Shown: in pieces, positions 4,229 to 38,299 of the stretch
Numbering within the stretch: position 1 is the first letter of the stretch
How the letters are laid out: every line of letters starts with the position of its first letter
NCBI RefSeq assembly: GCF_001418255.1
Contig: NZ_LIPV01000001.1
Location: forward strand, 1 to 64,000
Direction of reading: 5' to 3'
Source of the DNA: Thiomonas bhubaneswarensis
GTDB lineage: Bacteria; Pseudomonadota; Gammaproteobacteria; Burkholderiales; Burkholderiaceae_C
Length of the DNA: 64,000 nt
Program-made: the position numbers and the translations under genes
The notes under the pieces: model-generated
What the model was told of the DNA's origin: nothing
The model's database searches: none
What the model saw: only the letters and a program-made list of their open reading frames with translations

Positions 4229-4232
4229 GACT

Positions 4233-5285
4233 TTATCCCATTACTTCATTCAATAAACATTCCCAGTCTCTTACGAAGCGGTTTGCTGAAAAATCAACTC
4301 GCAGCTTCCGAAATACATCTTGTGTGTAGGAATGATTATCGATAACGTACTCGATACGGCAAGCTAGGGCGCTTACATCCCCAAGAGGGAAGGTATATAA
4401 ATCACTAAAATCTCTGAACAAATCCAAATGAGCGTCTATATTAGACAATGCTGATGGCAGTAGCGACGAAATTGCCTCGGCTGCACTAAGGCCAAACGAC
4501 TCACCCCACGATGGAGATACAAATACGCCCCCAGCCCTTCGTACGGAATCTATTAACGTTGATGCTGCGTGGAACGGTATCGGCGGCAACAAAACGGAAA
4601 TTCCAGAAAGACCTCTGTTCGCTATTTCCCGCTCAATATCTATTTCAATAGACTTAGGTCCGCAGAATAGCAACATAAACTCACCCTGGCGCCGCCTTTC
4701 GATCAATTCAAATGCGTCAAGCAACGAAATTGGGTCTTTTAGTTTATCCATTCGACCAAAAAAAAGAATTGGTCTTCGCGTCCACTCCGGGAGAAAGACG
4801 TCTTTGTCGGCTTGATACTCATCTATATCCCAAGGTACGAAATTAGCAAGCTCCAGAATAGGCGCCTGTACTGTGGGAAATTCCTTGCTTAAGAGCTCTC
4901 GAAACCGAGCGGACGGCGCAGCAACAGCCCTACACTCACCCGGCAAAGTCGAGAGATACTGTCTGTTTTCGTCATATCCCGTGTGGCACTCAACGATATA
5001 TCGCTGATTCGCCGCACTTAGCTTCCAGAGGAGCTGAGGGCAATCCACAAGGGACAGGAGATCGTATGAATCATCTAGCGAATGCACAACCGATGCAACA
5101 TCTTCGAGGTTATATTTTTTGAGCGCAGCGCTAAAACTCTTAAGGCCCCCACCGTCAGAAAGAAATAAGAAGTCTACTTGAACTCCCGGAAGATATTTTT
5201 TAAATGCCATTGCACGATTAATAAAAACTCGCTCACAGCCGCCAAATGTTGCCCAAGGGTAAGCAAAGCAAATCTTAGTATTCAT
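4233..5285 (-). CDS. Family 4-type glycosyltransferase
   Basis: The protein of about 350 residues begins NTKICFAYPWATFGGCERV, the loop typical of GT4 enzymes (a GG-x-E/R-V helix start), and contains ILFFGRMDKLKDPISLLDAF and SPSWGESFGLSAAEA, the donor-binding E-x7-E type motif. The ATG at 5285 is preferred over 5294; either overlaps the end of the upstream gene slightly. The gene is noticeably AT-rich, like the fusion gene upstream of it, which suggests recent acquisition. It is probably a polysaccharide or LPS glycosyltransferase; the sugar is unknown. Confidence 0.82.
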   Translation of the reverse strand: MNTKICFAYPWATFGGCERVFINRAMAFKKYLPGVQVDFLFLSDGGGLKSFSAALKKYNLEDVASVVHSLDDSYDLLSLVDCPQLLWKLSAANQRYIVECHTGYDENRQYLSTLPGECRAVAAPSARFRELLSKEFPTVQAPILELANFVPWDIDEYQADKDVFLPEWTRRPILFFGRMDKLKDPISLLDAFELIERRRQGEFMLLFCGPKSIEIDIEREIANRGLSGISVLLPPIPFHAASTLIDSVRRAGGVFVSPSWGESFGLSAAEAISSLLPSALSNIDAHLDLFRDFSDLYTFPLGDVSALACRIEYVIDNHSYTQDVFRKLRVDFSANRFVRDWECLLNEVMG

Positions 5286-24449: not shown

Positions 24450-24926
24450 TCACGGCCGCAGTGCGGCAACCAGTCTTTGGGGATGCAGGAACAGGTCGAG
24501 CGCGGCTCGAATATCTGGCACGACGATCTGCGCCGCCGTCAGCGCCTGGGCGTGGGCGCCCTCCGGCCCGAGCACGGCCACCCCGAGGGTGGCCAGGCCG
24601 AGCATGTCCACATCGTTGCGGCCGTTGCCCACGGCCGCCACCCCGGACGCCACCAAGGCGCGAGTGCGCGCGGCCTTGTCGGCACCGGAGACCACCACGG
24701 TGTGACGCACCGGCAGGCCCGCGAGCGCGCGCTCGACCGTGCCGTAGGTGTCGCCCGTGAGCACCTCGATGTCGAGCGTCGCACTGAGCGCGATCAGGCG
24801 CTCGGAGACGCCGTCGATCAGGGCGCCGTCATAAGCCAGCGTGCCGTTGAAATCGAGCAGCAGATGCCGCAAACCCAATGTCGCCGCTCCAGGAACGGCA
24901 ATGGTCAAACCTGCGCGCGTCATCAT
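24450..24926 (-). CDS. HAD-superfamily hydrolase
   Basis: The 158-residue protein has LLLDFNGTLAYDG, a DxN variant of HAD motif I in which the second Asp is replaced by Asn, and GNGRNDVDMLGLA as motif IV. There is no cap domain, so it may act on a large or soluble phosphorylated substrate; the D-to-N change could lower phosphatase activity. It overlaps the rfaE2-like gene upstream by four bases, which suggests a link to heptose or nucleotide-sugar metabolism, but this is inference. Confidence 0.75.
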   Translation of the reverse strand: MMTRAGLTIAVPGAATLGLRHLLLDFNGTLAYDGALIDGVSERLIALSATLDIEVLTGDTYGTVERALAGLPVRHTVVVSGADKAARTRALVASGVAAVGNGRNDVDMLGLATLGVAVLGPEGAHAQALTAAQIVVPDIRAALDLFLHPQRLVAALRP

Positions 24927-25402
24927 GCCGACCCGCCGCGAATGCGCTCGACCAGCGCGGTGGTGGAGCGGCCTTCGACAAAGGGAATGGCCACGGCACG
25001 CCCGCCCCAGGTCTGCACCAGCGCGGTTTCGGCCAGGGTGGCCATGTCGTAGTCGCCGCCCTTGACGTAGATGTCGGGTCGCACGCGCTCGATCAGCGCC
25101 AGCGGCATGCGCTCGTCGAACAGGGTGACGAGGCTCACGCTCTCCAGCGCGGCGAGCACGGCGGCGCGGTCGTCCTGCGTGTTGAGCGGTCGCTCGGGCC
25201 CCTTGCCGAGCAGGCGCACCGAGGCATCGGTGTTCAGCCCGAGCACCAGACTGGCACCGAGCGCGCGGGCTGCAGCCAGATAAACCACATGGCCCCGGTG
25301 CAGGATGTCGAATACCCCGTTGGTGAACACCATCGGACGCGGCAGGGCTGCAAGCCGGGTGTCGAGTTGGTCTGCGGAAACGATGTTGTCGAGAAAGTGC
25401 AT
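24923..25402 (-). CDS. rfaE2: D-glycero-beta-D-manno-heptose 1-phosphate adenylyltransferase
   Basis: The 159-residue nucleotidyltransferase has the HxGH motif in FTNGVFDILHRGHVVYL and the VKGGDYDMATL and GRSTTALVERIR segments. It makes ADP-heptose for the LPS inner core. In enterobacteria it is fused to the HldE kinase; here the kinase is a separate gene outside the window, as usual in Betaproteobacteria. It is coupled to the downstream HAD gene. Confidence 0.92.
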   Translation of the reverse strand: MHFLDNIVSADQLDTRLAALPRPMVFTNGVFDILHRGHVVYLAAARALGASLVLGLNTDASVRLLGKGPERPLNTQDDRAAVLAALESVSLVTLFDERMPLALIERVRPDIYVKGGDYDMATLAETALVQTWGGRAVAIPFVEGRSTTALVERIRGGSA

Positions 25403-25561
25403 GGCACGAAGCTTAGCCGCAGCCCGTCCAGTCGGTCGAAAGCCCCGTCACGATTGTTCACGCCTGCGCGGGGTGGATGCCGATATGATTTTGATCGATC
25501 CATATGTCATCATCCATCGACAGGCCTGCAAGTCAGGCCCATCGGGAAAGTGAGTCCCCCT

Positions 25562-26989
25562 GTGACGTCCGCCTTGCTCGGCCGCCTGCGTCTGTTCTGG
25601 CACAACCTCGATCCCATGGTGCCCATGACCCTGGTCGGCGCGCTGGTCGGGTTCATCAGCGCCATCGCAGTCGAGGGCTTCCGCCAGGCGATGTACGCCA
25701 TCATGCGGCTCTATTCGGAGCAGGAGCATCTGGTGGCCGCCGCAACCGGCCTGCCGCTATGGGCGCGGGTGGTCATCCCCACGGTGGGCGCCACGCTGGG
25801 CGGACTGGTGATGTGGGCCGGACATCGCTGGATCAAGCGGCCGCGCGGGCCTGAATACATGGAGGCGGTGCTGGTGGGCGACGGAAGGCTGCCGCTGGGG
25901 CCGAACCTCACGCGCACGCTGTCGTCGCTGGTGGGGGTGAGCAGTGGCATCACCATCGGCCGCGAGGGCACCATGATCCAGTTCGCGGCGTTGGTGTCGT
26001 CGCTGCTCGGGCGCATCGGCAAGACCGATGCCGCGCACCGCCGCCTCATCGTCGCCTGTGGCGCGGCTGCGGGTTTTGCCGGCGCTTATCACGCCCCGAT
26101 CGCCGGCACCCTGTTCGTCGCCGAGATCATTCTGGGCGGGCTGGCGCTGCGCGAGATCGCCGCGGTGCTGGTGGCCGCGGTGATGGGCGAACTCACCACG
26201 CAGGCACTGTTCGCCACCGGGCCGCTGTACCTGTCGCACACCATTCCCGTGGTGGGCTTTTCTGATCTGCTCGATGCGGTGTTCATCGGCCTGATCGCCG
26301 GCCTGCTAGGCCCGGCGTTTCTGTGGCTGCTCGACAACGCGCGCCGTCGCTACCAGCCGCTGATCGGCTTTCTGCCGCTGCGCATGGGACTGGCCGGACT
26401 GCTCATCGGCCTGCTGTCGATGATTCGCCCCGAGGTCTGGGGCAACGGCTACAGCGTGGTGCAGTCCATGCTGGTCGATCACTGGGCGCTGTCCACCCTG
26501 GCTCTGGTGTTCGTGCTGCGCATCATCGCGGTGACGGCGGCCAGCGCGGCGGGCATTCCCGGCGGCGTGCTCACCCCCACCCTGATGCTTGGCGGCGCCA
26601 TCGGCCTGATGGTGCAGCACACCCTGCTGCTGGGCGATGCCACGCATGCGCAGGCGCTGTGGGTGCTGGTGGGCATGGGCAGTCTGCTGGCGGCCACCAC
26701 GCATGCGCCGGCCATGTCGGCCATCATGGTGTTCGAGATCACCCGCAACTACAACGTGGTGCTCGCGGCCATGCCGGCCTGCGTGGTGGCCTCGGTCATC
26801 GGCAGCCTGCTGCACGAGCGCTCGGTGTATGCCGAGGCGCTGGGGCTGAAGGAGGAGCAGGGCGGATCGAAGACGTCGCTGTTCCAGGCCATCACCGGAC
26901 GCAAGCCCGCACCGCAAGCGCCGGACGACGCGGCCGAAGGCCCACCGTCGGGCCTCGACCCGCAGCGGCCCGTTCAATCGCGCGACTGA
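25562..26989 (+). CDS. ClC-type voltage-gated chloride channel/antiporter
   Basis: The ~475-residue membrane protein carries ClC motifs: GREGT (the glutamate gate with Thr in place of the usual Pro), HAPIAGTLFVAEI and GIPGGVLTPTLMLGG. About a dozen hydrophobic segments are present. It likely moves chloride, coupled or not to protons. No ATG opens the frame near the conserved part; GTG codons at 25550 and 25562 are the candidates. The stop lies 16 bases inside the convergent regulator gene. Confidence 0.88.
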   Translation: MTSALLGRLRLFWHNLDPMVPMTLVGALVGFISAIAVEGFRQAMYAIMRLYSEQEHLVAAATGLPLWARVVIPTVGATLGGLVMWAGHRWIKRPRGPEYMEAVLVGDGRLPLGPNLTRTLSSLVGVSSGITIGREGTMIQFAALVSSLLGRIGKTDAAHRRLIVACGAAAGFAGAYHAPIAGTLFVAEIILGGLALREIAAVLVAAVMGELTTQALFATGPLYLSHTIPVVGFSDLLDAVFIGLIAGLLGPAFLWLLDNARRRYQPLIGFLPLRMGLAGLLIGLLSMIRPEVWGNGYSVVQSMLVDHWALSTLALVFVLRIIAVTAASAAGIPGGVLTPTLMLGGAIGLMVQHTLLLGDATHAQALWVLVGMGSLLAATTHAPAMSAIMVFEITRNYNVVLAAMPACVVASVIGSLLHERSVYAEALGLKEEQGGSKTSLFQAITGRKPAPQAPDDAAEGPPSGLDPQRPVQSRD

Positions 26990-27984
26990 GGCGGCAGCAG
27001 CAGATCGGTGGTGGACGGGCTGCGGTGGCGCTCGCGCCAGTCGTGCACCGCGGGCGCCAGATCGCTCAGCGACGCCGTGACTCGCACCCCTTCGGGCAGG
27101 CGCTTGCGCAGCGCCGGGTTGGAGCCGCCCACCCAGAGCTCCACCTGCTGCGGCAGACGGCTGCGCAGATCGGCCACGGCGTCGAGCACCTGCGCGGGCT
27201 GCAGCAGGGACGAAAAGCTGAGCACCAGCACGTCCGCCGCATGGGCGCGCACCGCCCTCGCGATGTCGCTGAGCGGAAGCTGCGCGCCGAGTTGCACGCA
27301 GCGGCAGCCCTCCAGCGCCAGCATCGCCTCGGCCATCAGCAGGCCCAGAACATGCGGCTCCTGCGGCACCGTGGTCATCAGCACCCTGGGGCGTGACTGC
27401 GCGGCATCGGCCAGCGGTATGGCGCTGATGGCGGTGCGCATCGCGCGCTGGATCACCTCGGAATACAGATGCTCTTCGAAGACTTCGAGCGTTCCGCGCA
27501 TCCACGCCTGGCCGACGCCGGTGTTGAGCGGGGCCACGATGTCGGTGACGAAGCGGTCGAGGCCCATGCGCATGACGTCCTGCTGCAGGGCGCGGCGCAG
27601 GCGCTCGGCGTCGTGCTGCTTGATCAGCGCGATGTAGGCGCTGACCAGTGGGCTGTCGGCGGGTTCGGCCGTGAGCGCGCCGGTTGCGGCAGCCGAGCTG
27701 GCCTCGGTCAGCAGCCCGGCGCCGCGCGTCAGCACGTCGAGCCTCTCGAACGGCAAGGACACGACCTGCGCCGGACGGTGCCCGGCATCGAGCAGACGCT
27801 TGATCAGCCGCAGCCGCTCCACCTGCTCCGCCGGATAGAGGCGGTCGCCCGCAGCGTCGCGCTCGGGCTGCGGGAAGCCGTAGCGTCGCTCCCACACCCG
27901 CAGCGTGTCCTTGCCGATGCCGGTCTCCCGCTCGACGGCGGCAATGCCCAGCGGCTTCGCTGGGTTGAGGGTGAGGTCATTCAT
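26974..27984 (-). CDS. litR: MerR-family regulator with B12-binding domain (LitR/CarH-type photoreceptor)
   Basis: The 336-residue protein has an N-terminal MerR helix-turn-helix (residues ~12-75, with KDTLRVWERRYGFPQPERD), a helical cap and a cobalamin-binding Rossmann domain (~197-320). Residues that define light-sensing CarH/LitR are all present: W161, then E171-H172 at the same spacing as CarH, and E209-x-H211-x-x-G as the lower axial ligand motif. In the known family, adenosylcobalamin keeps the tetramer on DNA in the dark and light releases it. It is divergent from the lipid-modification operon at 28217-36460 and the intervening region has three matching palindromes. Confidence 0.85.
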   Translation of the reverse strand: MNDLTLNPAKPLGIAAVERETGIGKDTLRVWERRYGFPQPERDAAGDRLYPAEQVERLRLIKRLLDAGHRPAQVVSLPFERLDVLTRGAGLLTEASSAAATGALTAEPADSPLVSAYIALIKQHDAERLRRALQQDVMRMGLDRFVTDIVAPLNTGVGQAWMRGTLEVFEEHLYSEVIQRAMRTAISAIPLADAAQSRPRVLMTTVPQEPHVLGLLMAEAMLALEGCRCVQLGAQLPLSDIARAVRAHAADVLVLSFSSLLQPAQVLDAVADLRSRLPQQVELWVGGSNPALRKRLPEGVRVTASLSDLAPAVHDWRERHRSPSTTDLLLPPQSRD

Positions 27985-27992
27985 AAAAAGTC

Positions 27993-28005
27993 ATGTCTTG
28001 GACAA
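27993..28005. promoter_or_regulatory. Palindrome copy 1, proposed operator near the regulator start
   Basis: ATGTCttgGACAA matches the consensus TTGTCN3GACAA at 9 of 10 arm positions. It lies 8 bp upstream of the regulator ATG, where binding would block its own translation-start region or promoter. Confidence 0.45.
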
Positions 28006-28125
28006 GAACGGATTGAATTGCAGAGCCCGGCCTCACCAGGCCCTTGAAAACCCGCTGAATCCGCTCTGCGTCGCTTGTCGTATGACTATGTTAAGCGGCC
28101 CGCTGAAAATCTGATAACCCTGATG

Positions 28126-28138
28126 TTGTCCAGGACAA
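28126..28138. promoter_or_regulatory. Palindrome copy 2, proposed operator
   Basis: TTGTCcagGACAA is a perfect 5-3-5 inverted repeat located 79 bp before the start of the peroxidase-like gene and 142 bp before the regulator start. Same consensus as copies 1 and 3. Confidence 0.5.
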
Positions 28139-28178
28139 ACAGGGCGATGCTTGGTCTGTTCATGGAACTCAAGCATCA

Positions 28179-28191
28179 TTGTCCTAGACAA
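28179..28191. promoter_or_regulatory. Palindrome copy 3, proposed operator
   Basis: TTGTCctaGACAA, perfect arms, 53 bp (about five helical turns) from copy 2. A further half site TTGTC at 28211-28215 directly precedes the ATG of the peroxidase-like gene. Confidence 0.5.
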
Positions 28192-28216
28192 ACCGAAATC
28201 ACTACTGGAGTTGTCC

Positions 28217-28813
28217 ATGTCTCTCTTTGCCTCCTTCCGCCCCTTCCCCGCAGCGCTGTTTGCGGCCGTGTCGTTCACTCTGGCGCCCGCAGTCAAGGCC
28301 GCCGAGCCTGCACCCGCGGCGCCAGCCACCTGCCCCTCGCTGCTCAACAAGACCTTCCCCCGGCTGCAGGACGACAAGCCCGAAAGCCTTTGCCAATACG
28401 CGGGCAAGGTCATCCTGGTGGTGAATACAGCAAGCTATTGTGGCTTCACGCCGCAATACAAGGGACTCGAGGCGCTGTACCGCGAGTACGGCAAGCAGGG
28501 CCTGGTGGTGCTGGGCTTTCCGTCGAACGACTTTCACCAGGAGATGGACAACAACGCCAAAATCGCCGCGTTCTGCAAGGACACCTACAACGTTCAATTT
28601 CCGATGTTCGCGCCCTCGCATGTAACCGAGCCCAAGCCCAACGCGCTATATGAAAAGCTCATCCTGGCCACCGGCGATCAGCCCAAGTGGAATTTCTACA
28701 AATACCTGATCGGGCGCGATGGCAAGGTTGTCGGCGTCTATCCCAGCCTGGTCACGCCGGACAACAAAGACTTCGTCGCCAAGATCAAGACCCTGCTCGC
28801 GCAGAAGCCCTGA
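28217..28813 (+). CDS. Secreted glutathione peroxidase-family protein
   Basis: The 198-residue protein starts at 28217 after a GGAG site and has a Sec signal peptide ending near VKAAEP. The thioredoxin-like fold shows NTASYCGFTPQYKGLE with the peroxidatic Cys, GFPSNDFHQEMDNN, and WNFYKYLIGRDG with the conserved Trp. The Gln of the classical catalytic tetrad is replaced by Asp (SND-F). It would reduce peroxides, perhaps lipid peroxides, in the periplasm using thioredoxin-like donors. First gene of the putative light/oxidative-stress operon. Confidence 0.87.
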   Translation: MSLFASFRPFPAALFAAVSFTLAPAVKAAEPAPAAPATCPSLLNKTFPRLQDDKPESLCQYAGKVILVVNTASYCGFTPQYKGLEALYREYGKQGLVVLGFPSNDFHQEMDNNAKIAAFCKDTYNVQFPMFAPSHVTEPKPNALYEKLILATGDQPKWNFYKYLIGRDGKVVGVYPSLVTPDNKDFVAKIKTLLAQKP

Positions 28814-28864
28814 GAGTTTCGCCCCCCGCCGCATCTCCTCCTCACCCCGCCTGAAAGGTCCGCC

Positions 28865-29683
28865 ATGAACGCCCCGGAAAAACTGTTTACCCAGGCCGCA
28901 GCCGCCGCCATCCTTCCCGACGTGCAAGCCACGCCCGATCTGCGCCACATCGCTATTCAGCAGGTCGGGGTGCGCGATGTGCGTTACCCGGTGCAGATCC
29001 GTTCCGCGCAGGGCGCGCAGCCCAGCGTGGGCACCTTCGAGATGACGGTGGCGCTGCCGCCCGAGGTGAAGGGCACGCACATGTCGCGCTTCATCGAAAT
29101 GCTCGAAGCCCACCCCGAGCCGCTCGACGCCCGGCAACTCGGCGTCTTGCTGCAGCACATGCTGGTGCGCCTGCAGGCCACCGAGGGCGCCATCACGGCG
29201 AGGTTCACCTACTTCGCCCGCAAGGCTGCTCCGGTCTCGGGCGTGGAGAGTCTGATGGACTATGAAGTCACGCTGCGCGCCGAACAAAAAGCCGGGGCGA
29301 CGACGCTGGTGCAGAAGGTGCAGGTACCGGTCACCAGCCTGTGCCCGTGCTCGAAGGAAATCTCCAACTACGGCGCGCACAACCAGCGCTCGCACGTCAC
29401 CATAGGCGCCACGCTGCGCGGCGACCTGGGGCTGGACGAGCAGATCCGCATCGCCGAGACCGCGGCCTCGTGCGAGCTGTGGGGCCTGCTCAAGCGGCCC
29501 GACGAAAAGTACGTCACCGAGCGGGCCTACGACCATCCCAAATTCGTCGAAGACCTGGTGCGCGACGTCGCGGTGGCGCTGGAGCGCGACGACCGCGTGG
29601 CCGCCTACACCGTGGAATCGGAGAACTTTGAATCCATCCACAACCATTCGGCGTATGCCTTGGTGGAAGGCCGCAAACTCTGA
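28865..29683 (+). CDS. folE2: GTP cyclohydrolase FolE2 (type IB)
   Basis: The 272-residue enzyme opens GTP to dihydroneopterin triphosphate for folate or other pterins. [32 protein letters not shown] (zinc/manganese-binding Cys and His) and the [15 protein letters not shown] segment identify the COG1469 family. Its place behind a LitR-type regulator is notable because folE genes are light-induced in other LitR systems; pterins are also the antenna cofactors of photolyases. Confidence 0.95.
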
Positions 29684-29707
29684 CGACGCGGCCCGGGAGC
29701 CAAGATC

Positions 29708-31012
29708 ATGCGCATTGCCATCATCGGAACCGGTATTTCAGGCCTTGGGGCGGCGTGGGCGCTGCGCCATCGTGCGCAGATCACGCTGTTCGAGGCCGGC
29801 TCGCATTTCGGCGGCCACACTCACACGGTGGATGTCGACCTGCCCGGCGAGTTGCCCTTCGCCGTGGACACGGGCTTTCTGGTGCTCAACGAGCGCACTT
29901 ACCCCAGGCTACAGGCGCTGTTCGCCGAGTTGAATATTCCACTGGCAACGTCCGACATGTCGTTCTCGGTGCAGACCCCGCTGGCGGGCGGTGACACGCT
30001 GGAGTGGAGTGGGTCGAATCTGGACACGGTGTTCGCCCAGCGGCGCAACCTGGCGCGGCCTGCCTTCTGGCGCATGCTACGCGACATCCTGCGCTTCAAC
30101 CGCGAGGCCACGGCGCTGGCGCGGCGTCCCGACGCCGAACTCGACGCCGATCTCACCGTGGGGCAGTACCTGCGGCGCGAAGGCTACGGCGACACCTTTC
30201 TGCACTGGTATCTGCTGCCGATGACCGCGTGCATCTGGTCGTGCCCCCCGGGGCAGATGCTCGACTTTCCGCTGGCCACCCTGGTGCGCTTCTGCGACAA
30301 CCACGGCCTGCTGCAGGTCAACGACCGGCCGCAGTGGTTCACCGTGCGCGGCGGCGCCCGGCAGTATGTGCAGGCCATGCTCGCCCAACTGCCCGACGCG
30401 CGGCTGAACACGCCCGTCCACCGGGTGACGCGGCATGACGACGGCGTCGAGGTCCACACCCATGAAGGCCCGATCTGGTTCGACCGGGTGATCTTCGCCT
30501 GCCACAGCGATCAGGCGCTGGCCCTGCTCGATGCGCCCAGCCCGGCCGAGCAGGAGGTTCTGGGCACCATACGCTACCAGCCCAACCGCGCCCTGCTGCA
30601 CACTGACACCCGCCTGCTGCCGCGAGCGCGTCGCGCCTGGGCCTCGTGGAATTACGAAAGCGGCGCCGCCACGGGCGCGCAGGCGCCCACCGTGTGCCTG
30701 CACTATCTGCTCAACAAGCTGCAACCGCTGCCCACCCAGCGCCCCATCGTCGTCTCGCTCAACCCGCTGCGCGAACCGGCGCCGCACACCGTGCTGCGCG
30801 AGATTAGTTACGCCCATCCGATCTTTGACCGGGCCGCGATCACCGCGCAGCGGCGCGTGCCCGAGCTGCAAGGCCGACAGCACAGCTATTTCTGCGGCGC
30901 CTGGTGCGGCTACGGCTTCCATGAAGACGGCCTGAAATCGGGCTTCGAAGCCGCGCAGGCCTTGCTTTCCGACCTGGATGCGCAGGGCGCGTACCGGGCT
31001 CTTGCAGCGTGA
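29708..31012 (+). CDS. FAD-dependent amine-oxidase-like oxidoreductase (COG2907)
   Basis: The 434-residue flavoprotein starts with IAIIGTGISGLGAAWAL (dinucleotide fold), followed by LFEAGSHFGGHTHTVDVD and VDTGFLVLNERTYPRL, and ends YFCGAWCGYGFHEDGLKSG. Homologues sit next to DUF1365 and Cfa-like genes in singlet-oxygen and light-response loci of other Proteobacteria. It probably oxidises or desaturates a lipid intermediate; the reaction is not proven from sequence. The stop overlaps the next gene as GTGA. Confidence 0.88.
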   Translation: MRIAIIGTGISGLGAAWALRHRAQITLFEAGSHFGGHTHTVDVDLPGELPFAVDTGFLVLNERTYPRLQALFAELNIPLATSDMSFSVQTPLAGGDTLEWSGSNLDTVFAQRRNLARPAFWRMLRDILRFNREATALARRPDAELDADLTVGQYLRREGYGDTFLHWYLLPMTACIWSCPPGQMLDFPLATLVRFCDNHGLLQVNDRPQWFTVRGGARQYVQAMLAQLPDARLNTPVHRVTRHDDGVEVHTHEGPIWFDRVIFACHSDQALALLDAPSPAEQEVLGTIRYQPNRALLHTDTRLLPRARRAWASWNYESGAATGAQAPTVCLHYLLNKLQPLPTQRPIVVSLNPLREPAPHTVLREISYAHPIFDRAAITAQRRVPELQGRQHSYFCGAWCGYGFHEDGLKSGFEAAQALLSDLDAQGAYRALAA

Positions 31013-31896
31013 GGGCAGCCGCCATGATCTCGGCCAGGACCATGCGCAGCGGGCTGGAAACCAGGCCTGCGCCCAGCCGTTTGAGCAACGATGAGCCCAC
31101 GCCGCTGCGCCAGGACATCGCGTTGAACCGGCCGCTGCTGGGCAGCGGGCCGGTGCGGCACCGTCGGCTGCGGCCGGTGGAGCATGCGTTCAGCTATCGC
31201 GCGATGTTCCTGTTGTTGCCCATGCGCAGTCTGGCCCGCGATGCAGGCCTGCTGCCCATCGCCCGCAACCGCTTCGGCGCCATGAGTTTTTACGACGCCG
31301 ATCACGGCGATGGACGCAGCGACAGTCTTGCGTGGATCGAGTCGCTGCTGGCCGCCGAAGGCATCACCGACGCCGACGGCGAGATCTGGCTGCAGACCTT
31401 TCCGCGCGTCTGGGGCTATGTCTTCAAGCCCGTGAGCCTGTGGTACTGCGAGCGCGCCGATGGCAGCCTGCGTTGCGCGGTGGCCGAGGTGAATAACACC
31501 TTCGGCGAACGCCATTGCTACCTCCTCACCCCCGAGCCGGGCAGCGACCGGCTGCAATGGGGCGCGTCCTACACGGCCCGCAAGGTGTTTCACGTGTCGC
31601 CGTTTTGCACAGTGGAAGGCGCCTATCGCTTTCGCTTCCTGCGCAGCACCACGACCACGCCGCCGCGTCTCATCCTGCGCATCGACCATGACGACGACGC
31701 AAGCCCGCTCATCGAGACCAGCCTCAGCGGCGAGCTGACGCCGCTTACCAAAGCGAGCGCCCGCAAGGCCCTGCTGCGCCACCCGCTGCACAGCTTCGGG
31801 GTCATCGCCCGCATCCACTGGCAGGCGCTCAAGCTGTGGCGCAGCCGCGTGCCCTTTCATGCCAAGCCTCTCCCTCCAGACTCCTTCACGACCTGA
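31009..31896 (+). CDS. DUF1365 family protein
   Basis: The 295-residue protein has the family landmarks RHRRLRPVEHAFSYRAMFLL, FPRVWGYVFKPVSLWYC and EVNNTFGERHCYLL, then TARKVFHVSPFCTVEGAYRF. It has no known catalytic assignment. Start is a GTG overlapping the upstream stop by four bases; the conserved part begins only near residue 40. It is always seen with the COG2907 flavoprotein and a Cfa-like enzyme, so they are thought to act on membrane fatty acids together. Confidence 0.88.
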   Translation: MRAAAMISARTMRSGLETRPAPSRLSNDEPTPLRQDIALNRPLLGSGPVRHRRLRPVEHAFSYRAMFLLLPMRSLARDAGLLPIARNRFGAMSFYDADHGDGRSDSLAWIESLLAAEGITDADGEIWLQTFPRVWGYVFKPVSLWYCERADGSLRCAVAEVNNTFGERHCYLLTPEPGSDRLQWGASYTARKVFHVSPFCTVEGAYRFRFLRSTTTTPPRLILRIDHDDDASPLIETSLSGELTPLTKASARKALLRHPLHSFGVIARIHWQALKLWRSRVPFHAKPLPPDSFTT

Positions 31897-31898
31897 TC

Positions 31899-33170
31899 AT
31901 GAGCGCCAGCGACCGCACCCTCTCTTCGCTTTCCCCAGCCCCCGCGGGCATGTCCGCCGCGAGCCGCAGAAGGCCGAAGCCGCCGCTTGCCGCGCGGGGT
32001 GTGCTGCGTCTGCTCGAACGCCTGCAGATCGGTCGGCTCGACCTGTTCGGGCCCGACGGCGTCTGGCGTCACTACGGCCACGACACAGGCGGGCTGCATG
32101 CCCAAGTCACGCTGCACGACTGGCGGGTGATGGCCGAGGTGCTTCGCCGCGGCGACATCGCTTTCGCCGAAGCCTGGATGCGCCGCGCCTGGGACACGCC
32201 CGACCTACCCGCCCTGCTCGAATTGCTGGTGGCCAACCGCGACATCATCGCCCGCGCCCTGCACGGCAGCGCACTCGCGCGGCTGCCCGACCGTATTCGC
32301 CACCTTCTGCGCCGTAACAGCCGCGCCGGCAGCCGCGACAACATCCACGCGCATTACGACATCGGTAACGCCTTCTACCGTCTCTGGCTCGATCCGAGCA
32401 TGACCTATTCCAGCGCCCTGTTCAGCGGCAACGCCGCGCAGACGCTGGAACAGGCCCAGACCGCCAAATACGAGCGCGTGCTCGACCAGCTGCAACTGCA
32501 GCCCGGCGCGCGCGTGCTCGAAATCGGTTGCGGCTGGGGCGGGCTGGCCGAGGTCGGCCAGCAGCACGGGCTGCACATGGACGGTATCACCCTGTCCACC
32601 GAACAGTTGGCCTACGCACGCGACCGGCTCGCTGGCGGCAGCCCCAGGCCGCGCCTGGAACTGTGCGACTACCGCGACCTTGACAGGCTCGCGCCGCCCG
32701 AGGGATATGACGGCATCGCCTCCATCGAGATGTTCGAGGCTGTGGGCGAGGCCTATTGGCCGGGTTTTTTCCGCGCCTTGTCGCGCCATCTCAAGCCCGG
32801 AGGGCGCGCCTGCATTCAGACCATCACCATCGCTGACGACCTGTTCGCCGACTACCGTCGCGGCACCGATTTCATCCAGCGCTACATCTTTCCTGGCGGC
32901 ATGCTGCCCTCGCGCATGGCCTTCATCGCCCAGGCCGAGGCGGCGGGGCTGGAAGTCGTCGAGGAACTGGCCTTCGGCACCGACTATGCGCGTACCCTGG
33001 CCTTGTGGCGCGAGCGCTTCACCGCCCAGCTCGACGCGGTGCGCGCCCAGGGTTTCGACGATCGCTTCGTGCGGCTGTGGACCTTTTACCTCGCCTACTG
33101 CGAGGCCGGTTTCAGCCGGGGCTCGACCAATGTCTGGCAGTTCACCCTGCGCCATGCCCGGCCGCAATGA
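31899..33170 (+). CDS. Cyclopropane-fatty-acid-synthase-like SAM methyltransferase
   Basis: The 423-residue protein contains HAHYDIGNAFYRLWLDPSMTYSSALF, the SAM loop VLEIGCGWGGLAEVG, IEMFEAVGEAYWP and RGTDFIQRYIFPGGMLPS, the standard Cfa/mycolic-acid methyltransferase set. It acts on unsaturated acyl chains of membrane phospholipids. In this gene context the nearest described relatives are UfaM-type enzymes that methylate an acyl chain on the way to furan fatty acids, so true cyclopropanation is not assured. Its ATG follows the DUF1365 stop by two bases, and its end overlaps the next gene. Confidence 0.88.
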   Translation: MSASDRTLSSLSPAPAGMSAASRRRPKPPLAARGVLRLLERLQIGRLDLFGPDGVWRHYGHDTGGLHAQVTLHDWRVMAEVLRRGDIAFAEAWMRRAWDTPDLPALLELLVANRDIIARALHGSALARLPDRIRHLLRRNSRAGSRDNIHAHYDIGNAFYRLWLDPSMTYSSALFSGNAAQTLEQAQTAKYERVLDQLQLQPGARVLEIGCGWGGLAEVGQQHGLHMDGITLSTEQLAYARDRLAGGSPRPRLELCDYRDLDRLAPPEGYDGIASIEMFEAVGEAYWPGFFRALSRHLKPGGRACIQTITIADDLFADYRRGTDFIQRYIFPGGMLPSRMAFIAQAEAAGLEVVEELAFGTDYARTLALWRERFTAQLDAVRAQGFDDRFVRLWTFYLAYCEAGFSRGSTNVWQFTLRHARPQ

Positions 33171-33771
33171 GTCTCATCGCCTGAACCTGACGCGCCGCGG
33201 TCTGCTGCAGGCCGCTGCCGCGTGCGCGCTGGCCTTGCCCAGCCTGTCGCGCGCCGCGACCGACATCCCCGCCGAGGTTCTTGCCGCGATGCCCGACGCC
33301 CGGCTTTCGGGCAGTGGCGAGTTTCGCTACTTCGGCTTTCTGGTTTACCGCGCCACCCTCTGGGTCGGGCCGCAAGGGCTGGGCTCACGCCTGGGCGAGA
33401 CGCCCTTCGCCCTGCAACTGCGCTACGCCCGCAGCCTCGACGGTGGCGACATAGCCGCGCGCTCGGAAGAAGAGATGCGCAAGCTCGACGAAGGCAGCCC
33501 GCAGCAGCGCAGCGCCTGGCTGGCCGCCATGCAACGCATCTTCCCCGACGTGACCGACGGCGACACCTTGACCGGCGTGTTCACCCCCGGCGGTGATGGC
33601 GCGGCGTCGGCACAGACCCGCTTTTACTTCAACGGCAAGCTGCGCGGATCGGTGCCCGGCACCGCTTTCGCCCGGGCGTTTTTCGCCATCTGGCTCTCGC
33701 CCCGCACACCCGCGCCCGGGCTGCGCGACGACCTCCTCGCCAAGGCCTTCAGCGCGGCCAGCACCCCATGA
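33154..33771 (+). CDS. Chalcone-isomerase-like exported protein
   Basis: The 205-residue protein starts at an ATG 17 bases before the end of the methyltransferase gene. It has a signal sequence with RRGLLQAAAACALALPSLSRA, possibly Tat-type, and the bacterial chalcone isomerase-like domain: GSGEFRYFGFLVYRATLW, FALQLRYARSL, and FYFNGKLRGSVPGTAFARAFFAIWLSP. In bacteria such proteins are often found with lipid genes; a fatty-acid binding role is plausible and the plant reaction is unlikely. Confidence 0.83.
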   Translation: MPGRNESHRLNLTRRGLLQAAAACALALPSLSRAATDIPAEVLAAMPDARLSGSGEFRYFGFLVYRATLWVGPQGLGSRLGETPFALQLRYARSLDGGDIAARSEEEMRKLDEGSPQQRSAWLAAMQRIFPDVTDGDTLTGVFTPGGDGAASAQTRFYFNGKLRGSVPGTAFARAFFAIWLSPRTPAPGLRDDLLAKAFSAASTP

Positions 33772-35102
33772 ACCCGCCGCCCTGCAGCCTTCCCGCCAAC
33801 GTAATGGGCGCAGCCGGTTCCGCCCCGCTGCATGCCCTGGCGCTGCTGCGCTACGGGGCGCCGAGTCTGGCGTTTGCCTTCGTCGCGCTGCCGCTTTATG
33901 TCTACCTGCCCGAGCACTACGCCACGCGCTATGCGGTGCCGCTGGGCTATCTGGGCGCGGTGCTGCTCATCACCCGGTTTGCCGATGCGCTGTTCGACCC
34001 CTGGCTGGGACGGCTGGCCGATCATCTGCTGCGCCACGGCCTGGCCAAGCCCGCGCTCACCGCCGCCAGCGTGCTGATGTTCACCGGGTTTGCCGCGCTG
34101 TTCGCCCTGCCCGCGCTGCTGCCCTTCGAGGCCGATCCGGCGAGATTCACCCTGGGTTTCGTCGGCGCGCTGCTGCTCACCTATCTGGGCTTCAGCGCCG
34201 CGTCCATCGTGCATCAGGCCTGGGGCGCCATGCTGGGCAGAAACGAGACCGAGCTTGCCCGCACCGTGGCCTGGCGCGAGGGTCTGGGGCTGGCCGGGGT
34301 GCTGCTGGCGGCCCTCGTGCCGCAACTGGGCGGAGCCCCCGCGCTGGTCGTGGTGTTCGCCTTCGCGCTGCTGGCCGGGCTGGTGCTGTTGTGGCGCGCG
34401 CCCGATCCGGCACCGCACCGCGCGGCAACGCATGCGCTGCACTGGCGCAGCCTGCTTGCGCCGCTGCACAACCCGCGCTTCGTCGCGCTGCTCGCGGTGT
34501 TCGTCACCAGCGGCATCGCGGCGGCGATTCCGGCCACGCTGGTGCTGTTCTTCATCCGCGACCGGCTCGATGCGGCGGCGCTGGCCGGCGTCTATCTGTT
34601 TGCCTATTTCGCCGCGGCCGGGCTGCTGGTGCCGCTCTGGTTGCGCGCCGTGCCCCGCCTGGGCGCGGCGCGCTGCTGGCTGCTGGGCATGGCAATGGCG
34701 GTGGCGGCCTTCGTCTGGGCCGCGCTGCTGCAGCCGGGCGACCGCTGGGGCTATGCGCTGGTGGTGGTGCTGTCGGGCGCGGCGCTCGGCCCCGATCTGG
34801 TGATGCCGCCTGCGCTGCTGGCCGGGGTCATTCGCGCGGGTGGCCACGGCAACCGGTTCGAAGGCGCCTACTTCGGGCTGTGGAACTTTGCGACCAAGCT
34901 CAACCTCGCACTGGCTGCGGGGCTGGCGCTGCCGCTGCTGGCGCTGTTCGGCTACAGGCCAGGCACGCTGGAGACCGGCGCGCTGCCGCCGCTGGTGGTG
35001 GCGTACTGCCTGCTGCCGTCGCTGCTCAAGCTGGTTTCTGCCGGTCTGCTCTGGCATTTTTTCGTCCGCGGTCGGCCGGGTCTGGCCGCGTCCGCTTCCT
35101 GA
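33768..35102 (+). CDS. MFS transporter, GPH/MelB-like
   Basis: The 444-residue protein has 11-12 hydrophobic segments and the GPH-family elements ADALFDPWLGRLADHLL in the first cytoplasmic loop and NRFEGAYFGLWNFATKLNLALA in the C-terminal half. It overlaps the upstream stop by four bases. Its cargo is unknown; in related light or oxidative-stress clusters a transporter of this type is associated with the lipid-modifying genes, so a lipid or its precursor is possible. Confidence 0.83.
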   Translation: MNPPPCSLPANVMGAAGSAPLHALALLRYGAPSLAFAFVALPLYVYLPEHYATRYAVPLGYLGAVLLITRFADALFDPWLGRLADHLLRHGLAKPALTAASVLMFTGFAALFALPALLPFEADPARFTLGFVGALLLTYLGFSAASIVHQAWGAMLGRNETELARTVAWREGLGLAGVLLAALVPQLGGAPALVVVFAFALLAGLVLLWRAPDPAPHRAATHALHWRSLLAPLHNPRFVALLAVFVTSGIAAAIPATLVLFFIRDRLDAAALAGVYLFAYFAAAGLLVPLWLRAVPRLGAARCWLLGMAMAVAAFVWAALLQPGDRWGYALVVVLSGAALGPDLVMPPALLAGVIRAGGHGNRFEGAYFGLWNFATKLNLALAAGLALPLLALFGYRPGTLETGALPPLVVAYCLLPSLLKLVSAGLLWHFFVRGRPGLAASAS

Positions 35103-35117
35103 ATGGAGAGTGTTCCC

Positions 35118-35693
35118 ATGTTGTCGTCCACCTTGCGTTCCTGGCTGTCCTTTCGCCGTGGCTGGCTGCTCGCCGCCGTTCTGGGCATCAGCCTGCTGTC
35201 GGGCTGCGCCAGCGTCACGCCGCTGGACTACCGCGGACAGACGCCCACCTTCGATCTCAAGCAGTATTTCAACGGGCGGCTCACCGCGGTGGGCATCGTG
35301 TTCGACCGCTCGGGCAAGATGACGCGGCGCTTTCACGTCACCATCGACGCATCCTGGAAGGGCGATGTCGGCACGCTCGACGAGCATTTCGTCTACCACG
35401 ACGGCGCCAAGCAGGAGCGCATCTGGACCATCCGCGAGCTGCCCGAGAAAGACGGCGAGAAGCGCTACGTGGGCACCGCGGGTGACGTGATCGGCGAGGC
35501 CATCGGCCGCGCCGCCGGCAATGCGCTGAACTGGCACTACACCCTGGCGCTGCCGGTCGATGGCACGATCTATCACGTGCAGTTCGACGACTGGATGTAC
35601 CTGATGGACGACCACACCCTGCTCAACCATTCGGTCATCACCAAGTTCGGCTTCAAGGTGGGCAGCGTATTCCTGTCCTTCCACAAATCCTGA
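35118..35693 (+). CDS. DUF3833 lipoprotein
   Basis: The 191-residue lipoprotein has a signal ending LGISLLSGC and a lipocalin-like DUF3833 domain (FDLKQYFNGRLTAVGIVFDR, WKGDVGTLDEHFVYHDG, DDWMYLMDDHTLLN). The ATG at 35118 is preferred because GGAGAG lies at good distance; an ATG at 35103 is directly after the previous stop. It may carry lipids at the inner face of the outer membrane. It belongs to the same tight operon. Confidence 0.85.
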   Translation: MLSSTLRSWLSFRRGWLLAAVLGISLLSGCASVTPLDYRGQTPTFDLKQYFNGRLTAVGIVFDRSGKMTRRFHVTIDASWKGDVGTLDEHFVYHDGAKQERIWTIRELPEKDGEKRYVGTAGDVIGEAIGRAAGNALNWHYTLALPVDGTIYHVQFDDWMYLMDDHTLLNHSVITKFGFKVGSVFLSFHKS

Positions 35694-35698
35694 GCGCC

Positions 35699-36460
35699 AT
35701 GCCGCTGAACCCGCGCATCGAGGGCTGGAAAGGGCGGAGGGTCTGGGTGATCGGCGCCTCCACCGGCATAGGCCGCGCCTGCGCGGTGGCGCTGCTGCAG
35801 CGTGGCGCCCAGGTGGCCGTCTCAGCGCGCGATGCGCAGGCCCTGCAGACCGTAGGCGGCGCATTGGCCTTGCCGCTGGACGTCACTGATACCGCGGCGC
35901 TGCAGGCCGGCATGCAGACCCTGCAGCAGCAATGGGGCGGACTCGACCTGCTGCTCTATTGCGCCGGCACCTACCGCCCCATGCGCGCCACCGCCTTCGA
36001 CCTGGCCTCGGCCCTGCAGCATGACGAGGTCAACTACCGTGGCGCGCTGCGCGCCCTCGGTGCGGCGCTGCCGGTGTTCAACGCGCAGCGAGCGGGCCAT
36101 GTCGCCCTGGTCAGCAGCGTGGCGGGCTTCGGCGGATTGCCGCAAGCGCTGGCCTACGGCCCGACCAAGGCGGCGCTCATCAACCTGGCCGAAACGCTTT
36201 ACCTCGATCTGCGCCCCATGGGCATCGGCGTGAGCGTCATCAACCCCGGCTTCGTCGAAACCCCGCTCACCCGCCAGAACACCTTCGCCATGCCCGCGCT
36301 CATCACCCCGGAGCAGGCAGCTGGCGCCATCGTCTCCGGCCTGGAAGCGGGACGCTTCGACATCCACTTCCCCCGCCGCTTCACCCTGTGGCTCAAGCTG
36401 CTGCGCCTGCTGCCGCGCGGACTGTATTTCCACATCGTCAGCCGCTTCACCGGGATGTGA
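35699..36460 (+). CDS. Short-chain dehydrogenase/reductase
   Basis: The 253-residue enzyme has the cofactor loop [16 protein letters not shown], a [10 protein letters not shown] replacement of NNAG, VSSVAG and the catalytic YGPTK. It reduces or oxidises an unknown carbonyl or alcohol. As last gene of the operon, five bases after the lipoprotein stop, it is likely to work on the same lipid product. The C-terminus ([16 protein letters not shown]) is basic and hydrophobic and could touch the membrane. Confidence 0.87.
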
Positions 36461-36587: not shown

Positions 36588-37865
36588 ATGAACCTACGCA
36601 TGCATCGCCGCGAGTGGCTGGCGCTTTCCGCTGCAGGCGCTGCGGCCTGGATGACCCGCCCGGCCTGGGCCGTGGTGGCCGCACAGGCCGAAGACCCACT
36701 CGTTTCGTTCACTGGGCCGCAGGCCAATCCGTACTGGAACAATGTCGGGCCTTACGTCACCTACCCGCAGAAGGCACCACTGCTGCGGCTGACCGATCGC
36801 CCCATTCAGCTCGAAACCCCGCGGTATTACTTTCGCACCGCGCTCACGCCCAACGAGGCGTTCTATGTGCGGTACCACCTGCCCGACATTCCCAACGCCA
36901 TCGACCTGAAGCAGTGGCGGCTGATGCTGTCGGGCAACTTCAAGAAGCCACTGGAGCTGAGTTTCGATCAGCTCCAGCGCGAATTCCACCCGGTCACGCT
37001 GGCCGCGGTGAATCAATGCTCGGGCAATTCGCGCAGCCGCTTTCAGCCGCGGGTTCCGGGCGGGCAATGGGGCAATGGCGCGATGGGCTGCGCCGAGTGG
37101 ACGGGAGTCAGGCTGCGCGACGTGCTCGATCGCGCGGGCATAGCCCCCGGCACGGTACAGATCCAGTTCGAGGGACTCGATCACGGGCCTGGCCCGCAGG
37201 GCAAGGGCTCGCACCGTTTTCTCAAGTCGTGGGAGTTGCATGAGGCGATTCTGAACGAATCCATCATCGCGTACGCGATGAATGGCCAGCCCCTGCCCAT
37301 GCTCAACGGCTTTCCGGTGCGGCTGGTCATGCCGGGCAAGTTCGCTACTTACTGGACCAAGCATCTCACGCACATCCGCGCCCTGACCGAGCCCGACACC
37401 AATTTCTGGATGAAACCGGCTTATCAAGTTCCGGACACGCCGGGCGGCAACACCACGCCCGAAGCGCTCAAGGAGGGCAAGGTGAAGATGGTGCCCATCG
37501 GCCATGTGAACATGCCGGTGCGCAGTTTCATCGTCGATCCCGACGACAGTGTGGCGGTGATGCGCGGTCACCCCATGGTCGTCCGTGGCATTGCGTTCAG
37601 CGGCATGGGCGGCATCCGCAAGGTGGAGGTTTCCACCGACGACGGCCAGACCTGGAAGCCGGCGCGGCTGGGCCGCGACCTCGGCCGACACGCGTTTCGC
37701 GAGTTTCAGTTTGTCTGGACGCCCACCTTGGCGGGCTTGCAGACCATCGCCGTGCGCGCCACCGACTCCACCGGACACACCCAGCCGGATGCCGGGGTCT
37801 GGAACCCCGGCGGCTACCTGTGGAACAAGATCGAGCGCCAGCAGGTTCTGGTGCTCTCGGCCTGA
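36588..37865 (+). CDS. sorA: Sulfite dehydrogenase molybdenum subunit SorA
   Basis: The 425-residue periplasmic enzyme oxidises sulfite to sulfate. A Tat-type signal with [16 protein letters not shown] is followed by the oxidoreductase molybdopterin domain, with the Mo-ligand Cys144 in VNQCSGNSR and [11 protein letters not shown], and the C-terminal dimerisation domain ([22 protein letters not shown]). A strong GAGGAGGAAG site precedes the ATG. It is followed 14 bases later by the cytochrome subunit gene. Confidence 0.93.
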
Positions 37866-37879
37866 GAGGAGACAGCATC

Positions 37880-38299
37880 ATGCGCAAATTTCTCGTCCTC
37901 ACGCTGACCGCCCTGGCCGCGCTGGTCGGCTCCGTTCAGGCCGACACGCCACGCCCCGGCCTACTCGATTCAGGAGACTACGCCGGTGGGCCGCTGGGCA
38001 GTGCGCTGCAACCGGCGCGCGTCATCCCCGGCAACGGCGATGTGTACAAAGTGGGCAAATGGCCGACCTACACCGCCGAGTTGGCCGCAGGCCCCGGCCG
38101 GGATACCGTGCTGGGTCACTGCAGCATGTGCCACAGCGTCACCTACATCACCATGCAGCCGCCATTGCCTGCGGCCACATGGGACGCCGAAGTCCACAAG
38201 ATGATCAAGACCTTTGGCGCCCCCATCGACGAGGCCACGGCCAAGGACATCATCGCCTATCTGCAAGCGCACTACACCCCGCAGACGCGCAAGCAATAA
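37880..38299 (+). CDS. sorB: Sulfite dehydrogenase cytochrome c subunit SorB
   Basis: The 139-residue protein has a Sec signal peptide ending SVQADT and a single c-type heme site HCSMCHS (CxxCH at residues 81-85), with a methionine ligand possible in TMQPP. It accepts electrons from SorA. GAGAGGAGA precedes the ATG. It converges with the isocitrate dehydrogenase gene with a 23-bp gap and no clear terminator. Confidence 0.92.
   Translation: MRKFLVLTLTALAALVGSVQADTPRPGLLDSGDYAGGPLGSALQPARVIPGNGDVYKVGKWPTYTAELAAGPGRDTVLGHCSMCHSVTYITMQPPLPAATWDAEVHKMIKTFGAPIDEATAKDIIAYLQAHYTPQTRKQ

What the first reader, a model, noticed from the sequence alone, without database searches (positions are those of the whole stretch)
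26974..36460. Photoreceptor-type regulator divergent from a nine-gene lipid-modification operon
Seen: a MerR/B12 protein with W161, E171-H172 and E209-x-H211 at CarH-like spacing, divergent from nine same-strand genes, most of them with overlaps or gaps of a few bases: secreted GPx, folE2, COG2907 flavoprotein, DUF1365, Cfa-like, chalcone-isomerase-like, GPH transporter, DUF3833 lipoprotein and SDR. Known: COG2907/DUF1365/Cfa-like genes occur in singlet-oxygen or light regulons, and LitR-type proteins are reported to control folE and a furan-fatty-acid synthase. Inference: light or singlet oxygen releases LitR and the operon changes membrane fatty acids, possibly to furan fatty acids, with GPx protecting against lipid peroxides. 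The added chalcone-isomerase-like, transporter, lipoprotein and SDR genes suggest steps beyond the described pathway, such as moving the product to the outer membrane. No photolyase is in the cluster.
Basis: partly seen in the sequence, partly recalled or inferred. Interest (0 to 1): 0.82.

Follow-up and report, generated by a model that had tools for sequence, protein, structure and literature searches.

The report
Light-sensor-controlled furan fatty acid operon
A repressor of the vitamin-B12 light-sensing type sits back to back with a nine-gene operon that probably makes furan-type membrane lipids and perhaps moves them across the cell envelope; nearly all the genes are known from the singlet-oxygen response, but this switch, its predicted operator and the lipid-handling reading of the extra genes look new.

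Summary
In detail: a MerR/B12 protein (26974-27984, -) diverges from GPx, folE2, ufaD, ufaO, a Cfa-like gene, Chalcone_3, an MFS_2 transporter, DUF3833 and an SDR, in a Thiomonas-like genome. Transporter, lipoprotein and SDR are no additions: the Rhodobacter RSP1091-1087 operon has a GPH symporter, a hypothetical protein (DUF3833 by synteny) and an SDR, and deleting each left the furan fatty acid profile unchanged. New here, all computational: (1) a predicted LitR operator, TTGTCCWGGACAA, three times between the divergent genes, upstream of 64 of 82 ufa-linked litR genes, mostly paired near whole helical turns; (2) related operons sit next to LitR, a TetR protein or, in another class, an ECF sigma gene; LitR and that TetR never co-occurred in 140 loci; (3) the Cfa-like enzyme has Ser and Gln at cyclopropane synthase positions Cys139 and His266; 143 of 146 rows have Ser, Ala or Gly at 139 and 143 have Gln at 266; (4) the extra proteins look lipid-handling: a transporter nearer the lysolipid carrier MFSD2A than the sugar carrier MelB, a CHI-fold exported protein and a lipocalin-like lipoprotein. 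Light response, products and transport are untested.

The parts
26974..27984 (-). LitR/CarH-type MerR + B12-binding regulator (336 aa)
   Evidence: Pfam MerR_1, B12-binding_2, B12-binding; CarH in PDB search; W161, E171, H172, H211 kept in 79-81 of 81 homologues
27993..28005 (.). Predicted LitR operator site 1 (one mismatch), 8 bp upstream of the litR start
28126..28138 (.). Predicted LitR operator site 2, TTGTCCAGGACAA
   Evidence: one of the only two exact TTGTCNNNGACAA sites in the 3.2 Mb genome; kind conserved in related loci
28179..28191 (.). Predicted LitR operator site 3, TTGTCCTAGACAA, 53 bp from site 2
28217..28813 (+). Glutathione peroxidase with an apparent signal peptide (judged by eye)
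   Evidence: GSHPx
28865..29683 (+). folE2-type GTP cyclohydrolase
   Evidence: GCHY-1
29708..31012 (+). ufaD-like flavoprotein (COG2907, label recalled)
   Evidence: Pfam; syntenic with ECF-linked loci of another class
31024..31896 (+). ufaO-like DUF1365 protein (start 31024 or 31042)
   Evidence: DUF1365; start read from sequence
31899..33170 (+). ufaM-like methyltransferase (Cfa family) with Ser and Gln at E. coli Cfa positions 139 and 266
   Evidence: CMAS; residue check; start read from sequence
33154..33771 (+). Chalcone_3 protein with a twin-arginine-like N-terminus (by eye); CHI fold
   Evidence: Pfam; start; model pLDDT 89.4 and PDB fold matches
33768..35102 (+). MFS_2 (GPH-family) transporter, family profile nearer MFSD2A than MelB
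   Evidence: control
35103..35693 (+). DUF3833 lipoprotein (lipobox LSGC by eye), lipocalin-like barrel
35699..36460 (+). Short-chain dehydrogenase/reductase
   Evidence: adh_short

Best explanation
A light-controlled furan-fatty-acid operon. In the dark, adenosyl-B12-bound LitR (inferred to be a CarH-like oligomer) sits on paired 13-bp palindromes between litR and the operon and represses it, and probably itself. Light breaks the Co-C bond, LitR lets go, and the operon is transcribed. UfaM methylates unsaturated phospholipid acyl chains, UfaD desaturates the product, and UfaO adds O2-derived oxygen to give a methylated furan fatty acid, which reacts with singlet oxygen; the exported GPx would reduce lipid peroxides. 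The transporter, the CHI-fold exported protein and the lipocalin-like lipoprotein probably handle lipids or their oxidation products across the envelope. Shown by computation: genes, order, conservation, operator enrichment and spacing, residues, folds. Inferred: light/B12 response, repression, reaction products, lipid transport.
For: Genes and families. B12-photoreceptor motifs GxxW, EH, GxxxP and the His ligand near-invariant in 81 LitR homologues (motifs from passages of PMC11796333). Operator: the only two exact TTGTCNNNGACAA sites in the genome lie here; 46 of 80 related LitR loci have an exact site in a 430-bp stretch at the litR start, against 3 sites in 1,174,311 bp of the rest of those loci and 3 in 860,162 bp of 60 LitR-less loci; 64 of 82 have a site of at least 11/13 to TTGTCCWGGACAA, against a mean of 1.0 and at most 3 of 82 for random windows in 20 repeats. 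Of 42 site pairs closer than 110 bp, 38 are spaced 31-33, 52-55, 62-64 or 74 bp; phasing vector of all 42 at 10.5 bp: 0.82. Cfa-like rows: position 139 Ser/Ala/Gly in 143 of 146, position 266 Gln in 143 of 146. UfaM/D/O chemistry shown in R. sphaeroides and R. palustris (passages of PMC7380195). PduO-type adenosyltransferase. Transporter profile: MFSD2A 2.5e-17, MelB 2.8e-11, while single-sequence YagG prefers MelB, 1.3e-47 against 2.6e-20. Folds of Chalcone_3 and DUF3833.
Against: No expression, binding or lipid data. The palindrome is not the tandem 11-bp direct repeat (nnnnTnnACAn) known for CarH, although a palindrome of this consensus holds one TnnACA on one strand. 18 of 82 LitR loci lack a site of 11/13 or better and 19 of 80 lack the 11-bp core in the stretch searched. 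A simple scan found no sigma-70-like promoter in 27900-28260. The GxxH motif is QxxH here, and the NCBIfam CarH model is matched far under its cut-off. RSP1087-1089 deletions had no effect on the fatty acid profile, so a transport role is unproven. Site spacings are not independent among close relatives.
Confidence: 0.72

Rival explanations
1. LitR gauges B12 status or oxidation rather than light in nature; the operon answers B12 shortage or oxidants.
For: Apo-CarH of Thermus is a monomer like the lit form, so loss of B12 could also derepress (passages). Nothing here shows that the host meets light; that Thiomonas often lives in mine drainage is recalled.
Against: W161, E171 and H172, equivalents of photoreceptor residues, are kept in 79-81 of 81 homologues; the gene set is a photo-oxidative one.
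Confidence: 0.15
2. The operon makes branched or cyclopropane fatty acids, not furans: the Cfa-like enzyme is a cyclopropane synthase and UfaD/UfaO do other redox chemistry.
For: The best NCBIfam match is a cyclopropane synthase model, though under its cut-off (244.7 against 400 bits); I have no product data for this lineage.
Against: His266 and Cys139 of E. coli Cfa are each replaced in 143 of 146 rows; of 74 LitR loci with enough sequence, 74 have UfaO and 70 the Cfa-like gene downstream of ufaD.
Confidence: 0.13
3. The palindromes are bound by another regulator, and LitR acts elsewhere.
For: They differ from the published class II LitR site (TGTACA-N12-TGTACA) and CarH repeats.
Against: They follow litR: 46 of 80 LitR loci have an exact site beside it, against 3 exact sites in all the sequence of 60 LitR-less loci; this is the only clear litR in the genome (other match 33% over 70 residues, E 9.9e-4).
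Confidence: 0.08

Closest known systems
R. sphaeroides RSP1091-1087 operon and RSP2144 (sigmaE-ChrR regulon)
   Same: ufaD, ufaO, GPH symporter, hypothetical protein and SDR in one operon; RSP2144 (cfaS/ufaM), folE2 and a photolyase in the same 1O2-response table. Unnamed loci of another class of the phylum show ECF next to UfaD-UfaO-GPH-DUF3833-SDR (L177, L178).
   Different: There an ECF sigma factor and ChrR respond to singlet oxygen, and ufaM and folE2 lie elsewhere. Here LitR is the neighbour; Cfa-like gene, folE2, GPx and Chalcone_3 are in the same operon; no photolyase is.
Pseudomonas PplR/PmlR (class II LitR) light regulon
   Same: LitR-family repressor near an SDR, FAD oxidoreductase, UfaM and hypotheticals, with folE in the light-inducible set.
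   Different: Class II LitR is held unable to bind B12 and is driven by a LOV protein; site TGTACA-N12-TGTACA. Here the B12 residues are complete and the predicted operator differs.
Thermus/Bacillus/Myxococcus CarH carotenoid switch
   Same: MerR-B12 architecture and ligand residues; dark repressor.
   Different: Controls carotenoid genes through tandem 11-bp direct repeats; here lipid genes and phased palindromes (predicted).
Vibrio cholerae MerR/ChrR blue-light response and Shewanella RpoE2-ChrR regulon
   Same: A cfa-annotated gene is induced by blue light in V. cholerae; periplasmic GPx and a phrB-cfa operon are in the Shewanella RpoE2 regulon.
   Different: In Shewanella ECF sigma control and separate units; a B12-type LitR is not mentioned in the passages seen.

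Membership tests
B12-dependent LitR/CarH photoreceptor | MerR HTH + two B12-binding domains | tested here: met
   CarH in PDB hits
B12-dependent LitR/CarH photoreceptor | W131, E141, H142, H177 equivalents; motifs GxxW, EH, GxxxP | tested here: met
B12-dependent LitR/CarH photoreceptor | GxxH motif in full | tested here: not met
   QxxH here; His kept in 79, Gly in 22 of 81 homologues
B12-dependent LitR/CarH photoreceptor | NCBIfam CarH equivalog above its cut-off | tested here: not met
   117.8 bits against 400: a relative, not an equivalog of that model
B12-dependent LitR/CarH photoreceptor | Tandem 11-bp direct-repeat operator | tested here: inconclusive
   phased 13-bp palindromes predicted instead; the direct repeat was not scanned for by itself
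B12-dependent LitR/CarH photoreceptor | AdoB12 binding and light-driven loss of DNA binding | not testable with these tools
   -
Ufa furan fatty acid pathway | UfaM-, UfaD- and UfaO-type (DUF1365) homologues together | tested here: met
   no named Rhodobacter sequence was compared
Ufa furan fatty acid pathway | Furan fatty acid product | not testable with these tools
   -
Cyclopropane fatty acid synthase | Bicarbonate ligands Glu239, His266, Tyr317 (and Cys139) | tested here: not met
   Glu and Tyr kept; His266->Gln, Cys139->Ser (three ligands from PMC11387697; Cys139 recalled)
sigmaE-ChrR (ECF11) regulon | TGATC-N15-19-CGT(A/C) promoter | tested here: not met
   none in the window; in 9 of 20 loci (8 of them L178-L185); in LitR loci 3 of 79, TetR 2 of 27, neither 0 of 29
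MelB-type sugar symporter | Sugar-site Asp19 and Asp124 (recalled) | tested here: not met
   replaced in the profile alignment, read by eye; cation-site Asp pair kept

The most novel reading that the evidence does not exclude
A B12-based light sensor drives both the synthesis of furan-type lipids and a trans-envelope route for them: an MFSD2A-like inner-membrane lysolipid carrier, an exported CHI-fold fatty-acid carrier and a lipocalin-like lipoprotein place the singlet-oxygen quencher, or clear its oxidised form, at the outer membrane. The operon has changed its switch several times among a light sensor, a TetR repressor and a singlet-oxygen sigma factor.
Probability: 0.3. Interest if true: 0.78.

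Novelty: new variant of a known kind. Interest (0 to 1): 0.58.

Why it matters
It would join three separate lines: B12 light sensing, furan fatty acid chemistry and bacterial lipid transport. It offers a concrete operator for a B12-type LitR outside carotenoid control, a two-residue signature that may tell UfaM from cyclopropane synthase, and testable roles for three protein groups (Chalcone_3, DUF3833 and this MFS_2 clade) that travel with the pathway. The regulator exchange suggests that one photoprotective operon has been placed under different sensors.

Tried and rejected
Rejected or without result: (1) A wider LitR regulon. One-mismatch sites genome-wide equal the reversed control (82 against 83). 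In 300 genomes of the order 36 have the strict palindrome, at 40 places by my count of the table, 10 of them within 2.5 kb of ufaD, against 23 for the reversed control. (2) Direct sigmaE-ChrR control here: no ECF11-type promoter; the one Cupin_7 protein of the genome has no sigma factor that I could recognise by eye among the ORFs of at least 130 aa in 9 kb around it. (3) A CobA/BtuR-type adenosyltransferase: no match, but a PduO type is present. (4) A PDB sequence match for Chalcone_3: none with the profile. (5) An ECF11-type promoter as explanation for the 29 loci with neither LitR nor TetR: 0 of 29; their regulator is unknown. (6) NCBIfam names: no row shown is above its cut-off; nine of the ten proteins were given (not folE2) and 25 of 211 SDR rows were shown. 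(7) A cobalamin riboswitch or other RNA element: Rfam found only the two tRNAs in the window. (8) The plasmid search: 123 records, all under 60% identity, not followed.

The two sets may overlap (one contig length occurs in both; 135 different ufaD proteins of 136). The ufaD tree is a FastTree run with some long branches. LitR hits of 60 bits or less were dropped, LitR frames under 200 aa, and Cfa hits of 80 bits or less or under 250 aa. 'Rhodobacterales' is my guess for family f92, which is unnamed.
Full report
1. What is there. Ten genes lie as described and belong to the stated families: litR on the minus strand, then GPx, folE2, ufaD, ufaO, a Cfa-like gene, a Chalcone_3 gene, an MFS_2 transporter, a DUF3833 lipoprotein and an SDR on the plus strand. 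The nearest named records are Thiomonas and unclassified proteobacterial MAGs (the closest ufaD protein is 92% identical). In 140 related loci (20, 40, 80; annotated by tblastn) the order recurs: of 74 LitR loci with enough downstream sequence, UfaO is found in 74, the Cfa-like gene in 70, Chalcone_3 in 65, the transporter in 65, DUF3833 in 68 and the SDR in 69.

2. The sensor. LitR matches CarH in the PDB. W161, E171, H172, E209, H211 and G214 are kept in 81, 80, 79, 80, 79 and 80 of 81 homologues. Of the four motifs of the published B12-photoreceptor signature (passages of PMC11796333), GxxW, EH and GxxxP are met and GxxH is QxxH. The genome has one clear litR; the other match is 33% over 70 residues at E 9.9e-4. 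A PduO-type adenosyltransferase is present. Class II LitR of Pseudomonas is held unable to bind B12 (passages of PMC9758184); this one has the residues of the B12 type. It is far under the cut-off of NCBIfam's CarH model (117.8 against 400 bits), so it is a relative and not an equivalog of that model.

3. The predicted operator. Three palindromes TTGTC-NNN-GACAA lie between litR and GPx: exact at 28126 and 28179, with one mismatch at 27993 (the window as a whole has four sites with up to one mismatch, where shuffles give 1.13 on average). The two exact ones are the only exact sites in 3.2 Mb; the reversed control pattern has one. Of 80 related LitR loci, 46 have an exact site and 61 the 11-bp core in a 430-bp stretch at the litR start, against 3 and 16 sites in 1,174,311 bp of the rest of those loci and 3 and 5 sites in 860,162 bp of 60 LitR-less loci. 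With the consensus TTGTCCWGGACAA, 64 of 82 loci have a site of at least 11/13 in 540 bp; 20 sets of random windows of the same loci give a mean of 1.0 and a maximum of 3 (at 10/13: 71 against 8.2). Of the 42 site pairs closer than 110 bp, 38 are spaced 31-33, 52-55, 62-64 or 74 bp; the others are 23 (twice), 89 and 102. The phasing vector of all 42 at 10.5 bp is 0.82. Close relatives share spacings, so the printed p value overstates the case, but several distinct spacings near whole turns suggest binding on one DNA face, as for a CarH-like oligomer. Known CarH operators are tandem 11-bp direct repeats (passages of PMC9304148), and the class II site is TGTACA-N12-TGTACA. I saw no paper on an operator like this in the listings; most subscription papers are not held, and the Pseudomonas and Burkholderia LitR papers themselves were not available.

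4. The enzymes. In R. sphaeroides and R. palustris, UfaM, UfaD and UfaO make a methylated furan fatty acid (passages of PMC7380195). Against E. coli Cfa the Cfa-like protein has Ser for Cys139 and Gln for His266 but keeps Glu239, Ile268 and Tyr317. Of 146 rows from the loci, window included, position 139 is Ser in 111, Ala in 29, Gly in 3, Cys in 2 and a gap in 1; position 266 is Gln in 143. The one row with both Cys and His, in L189, lies on the other strand upstream of ufaD and is only 32% identical, so I take it for a true Cfa. Glu239, His266 and Tyr317 bind the bicarbonate of E. coli Cfa (passages of PMC11387697). I infer methyl transfer without ring closure, which fits UfaM.

5. The extra genes. 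RSP1089 is a GPH symporter and RSP1087 an SDR, and folE2 responds with them (passages of PMC7074977); deleting RSP1087, 1088 or 1089 did not alter the fatty acid profile. RSP1088 as DUF3833 is my inference from unnamed loci with UfaD-UfaO-GPH-DUF3833-SDR next to an ECF sigma gene (L177, L178); its best P. syringae hit is a lipoprotein (passages of PMC5507510). One paper held RSP1089-1087 to be restricted to Rhodobacteraceae (passages of PMC3818230); the Burkholderiales loci here show the same three families in the same order. A periplasmic GPx under RpoE2-ChrR is known from Shewanella (passages of PMC4336711). For Chalcone_3 I saw no precedent in the passages read; it also occurs in one ECF-linked locus (L179) and near a gammaproteobacterial one (L192). 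Chalcone_3 folds (pLDDT 89.4) as a chalcone isomerase; matches include the fatty-acid-binding protein AtFAP1, TM 0.60, but isomerases rank as high. DUF3833 folds (pLDDT 93.3) as a lipocalin-like barrel; an FABP-like protein, a CpeS-type lyase, a spirocyclase, designed barrels and nitrobindins are among weak matches (E 2e-5 to 5e-3, TM about 0.4-0.6). The transporter's only PDB match by single sequence is MFSD2A (E 0.0087); its family profile prefers MFSD2A (2.5e-17) to MelB (2.8e-11), whereas E. coli YagG, as a single sequence, prefers MelB (1.3e-47 against 2.6e-20). MelB's sugar-site aspartates are replaced and the cation pair is kept (by eye; roles recalled). I infer lipid handling across the envelope.

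6. Regulator exchange. Of 140 loci, 79 carry LitR, 27 a TetR protein, 29 neither, and 5 are cut (TetR family). None of 80 LitR loci has that TetR protein, while 28 of the 60 without LitR have it. On a ufaD tree (FastTree) the LitR/TetR label needs 4 changes among 107 rows and the three states 14 among 136. FolE2 stands upstream in 35 of 77 LitR loci, 0 of 27 TetR loci and 1 of 28 others; GPx in 35, 2 and 10. Of the 20 loci, 9 have a TGATC-N-CGT(A/C) promoter before ufaD, 8 of them L178-L185, where one search also finds an ECF sigma gene; the motif is published for Shewanella RpoE2. The window has none, and of the Burkholderiales loci 3 of 79, 2 of 27 and 0 of 29 have it.

7. Verdict. The finding is real and conserved. 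The pathway and the light control of ufaM are known; the B12-type switch on it, the predicted operator, the exchange of regulators, the UfaM residues and the lipid-carrier reading are what is new, as far as I could search, and all are computational. Passages of PMC5241685, PMC12089945 and PMC6852236 were also seen. No paper was read whole.

Noticed in passing
window 36588-38299: A sulfite dehydrogenase-like pair (molybdopterin protein and small cytochrome, named by eye from the sequence) follows the SDR on the same strand.
   Followed up: no
window 24878-26989: A CLC-type chloride channel (by eye) converges on litR; their 3' ends overlap by 16 bp.
   Followed up: no
L035, L073, L153 and other LitR-less loci: A divergent TetR-family protein takes LitR's place at the same operon; its ligand and operator are unknown.
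   Followed up: partly
29 loci with neither LitR nor TetR: The operon is present with neither regulator beside it and no ECF11-type promoter.
   Followed up: partly
L062:761 and L161:8558 (oriented as): Exact operator-like palindromes outside the stretch searched, within or near litR; perhaps further LitR sites.
   Followed up: no
L199 (G000:C9:97000-106000), 4137-4808: A Cupin_7 protein beside an amine oxidase-like flavoprotein (by eye); no sigma factor recognised among the ORFs listed.
   Followed up: partly
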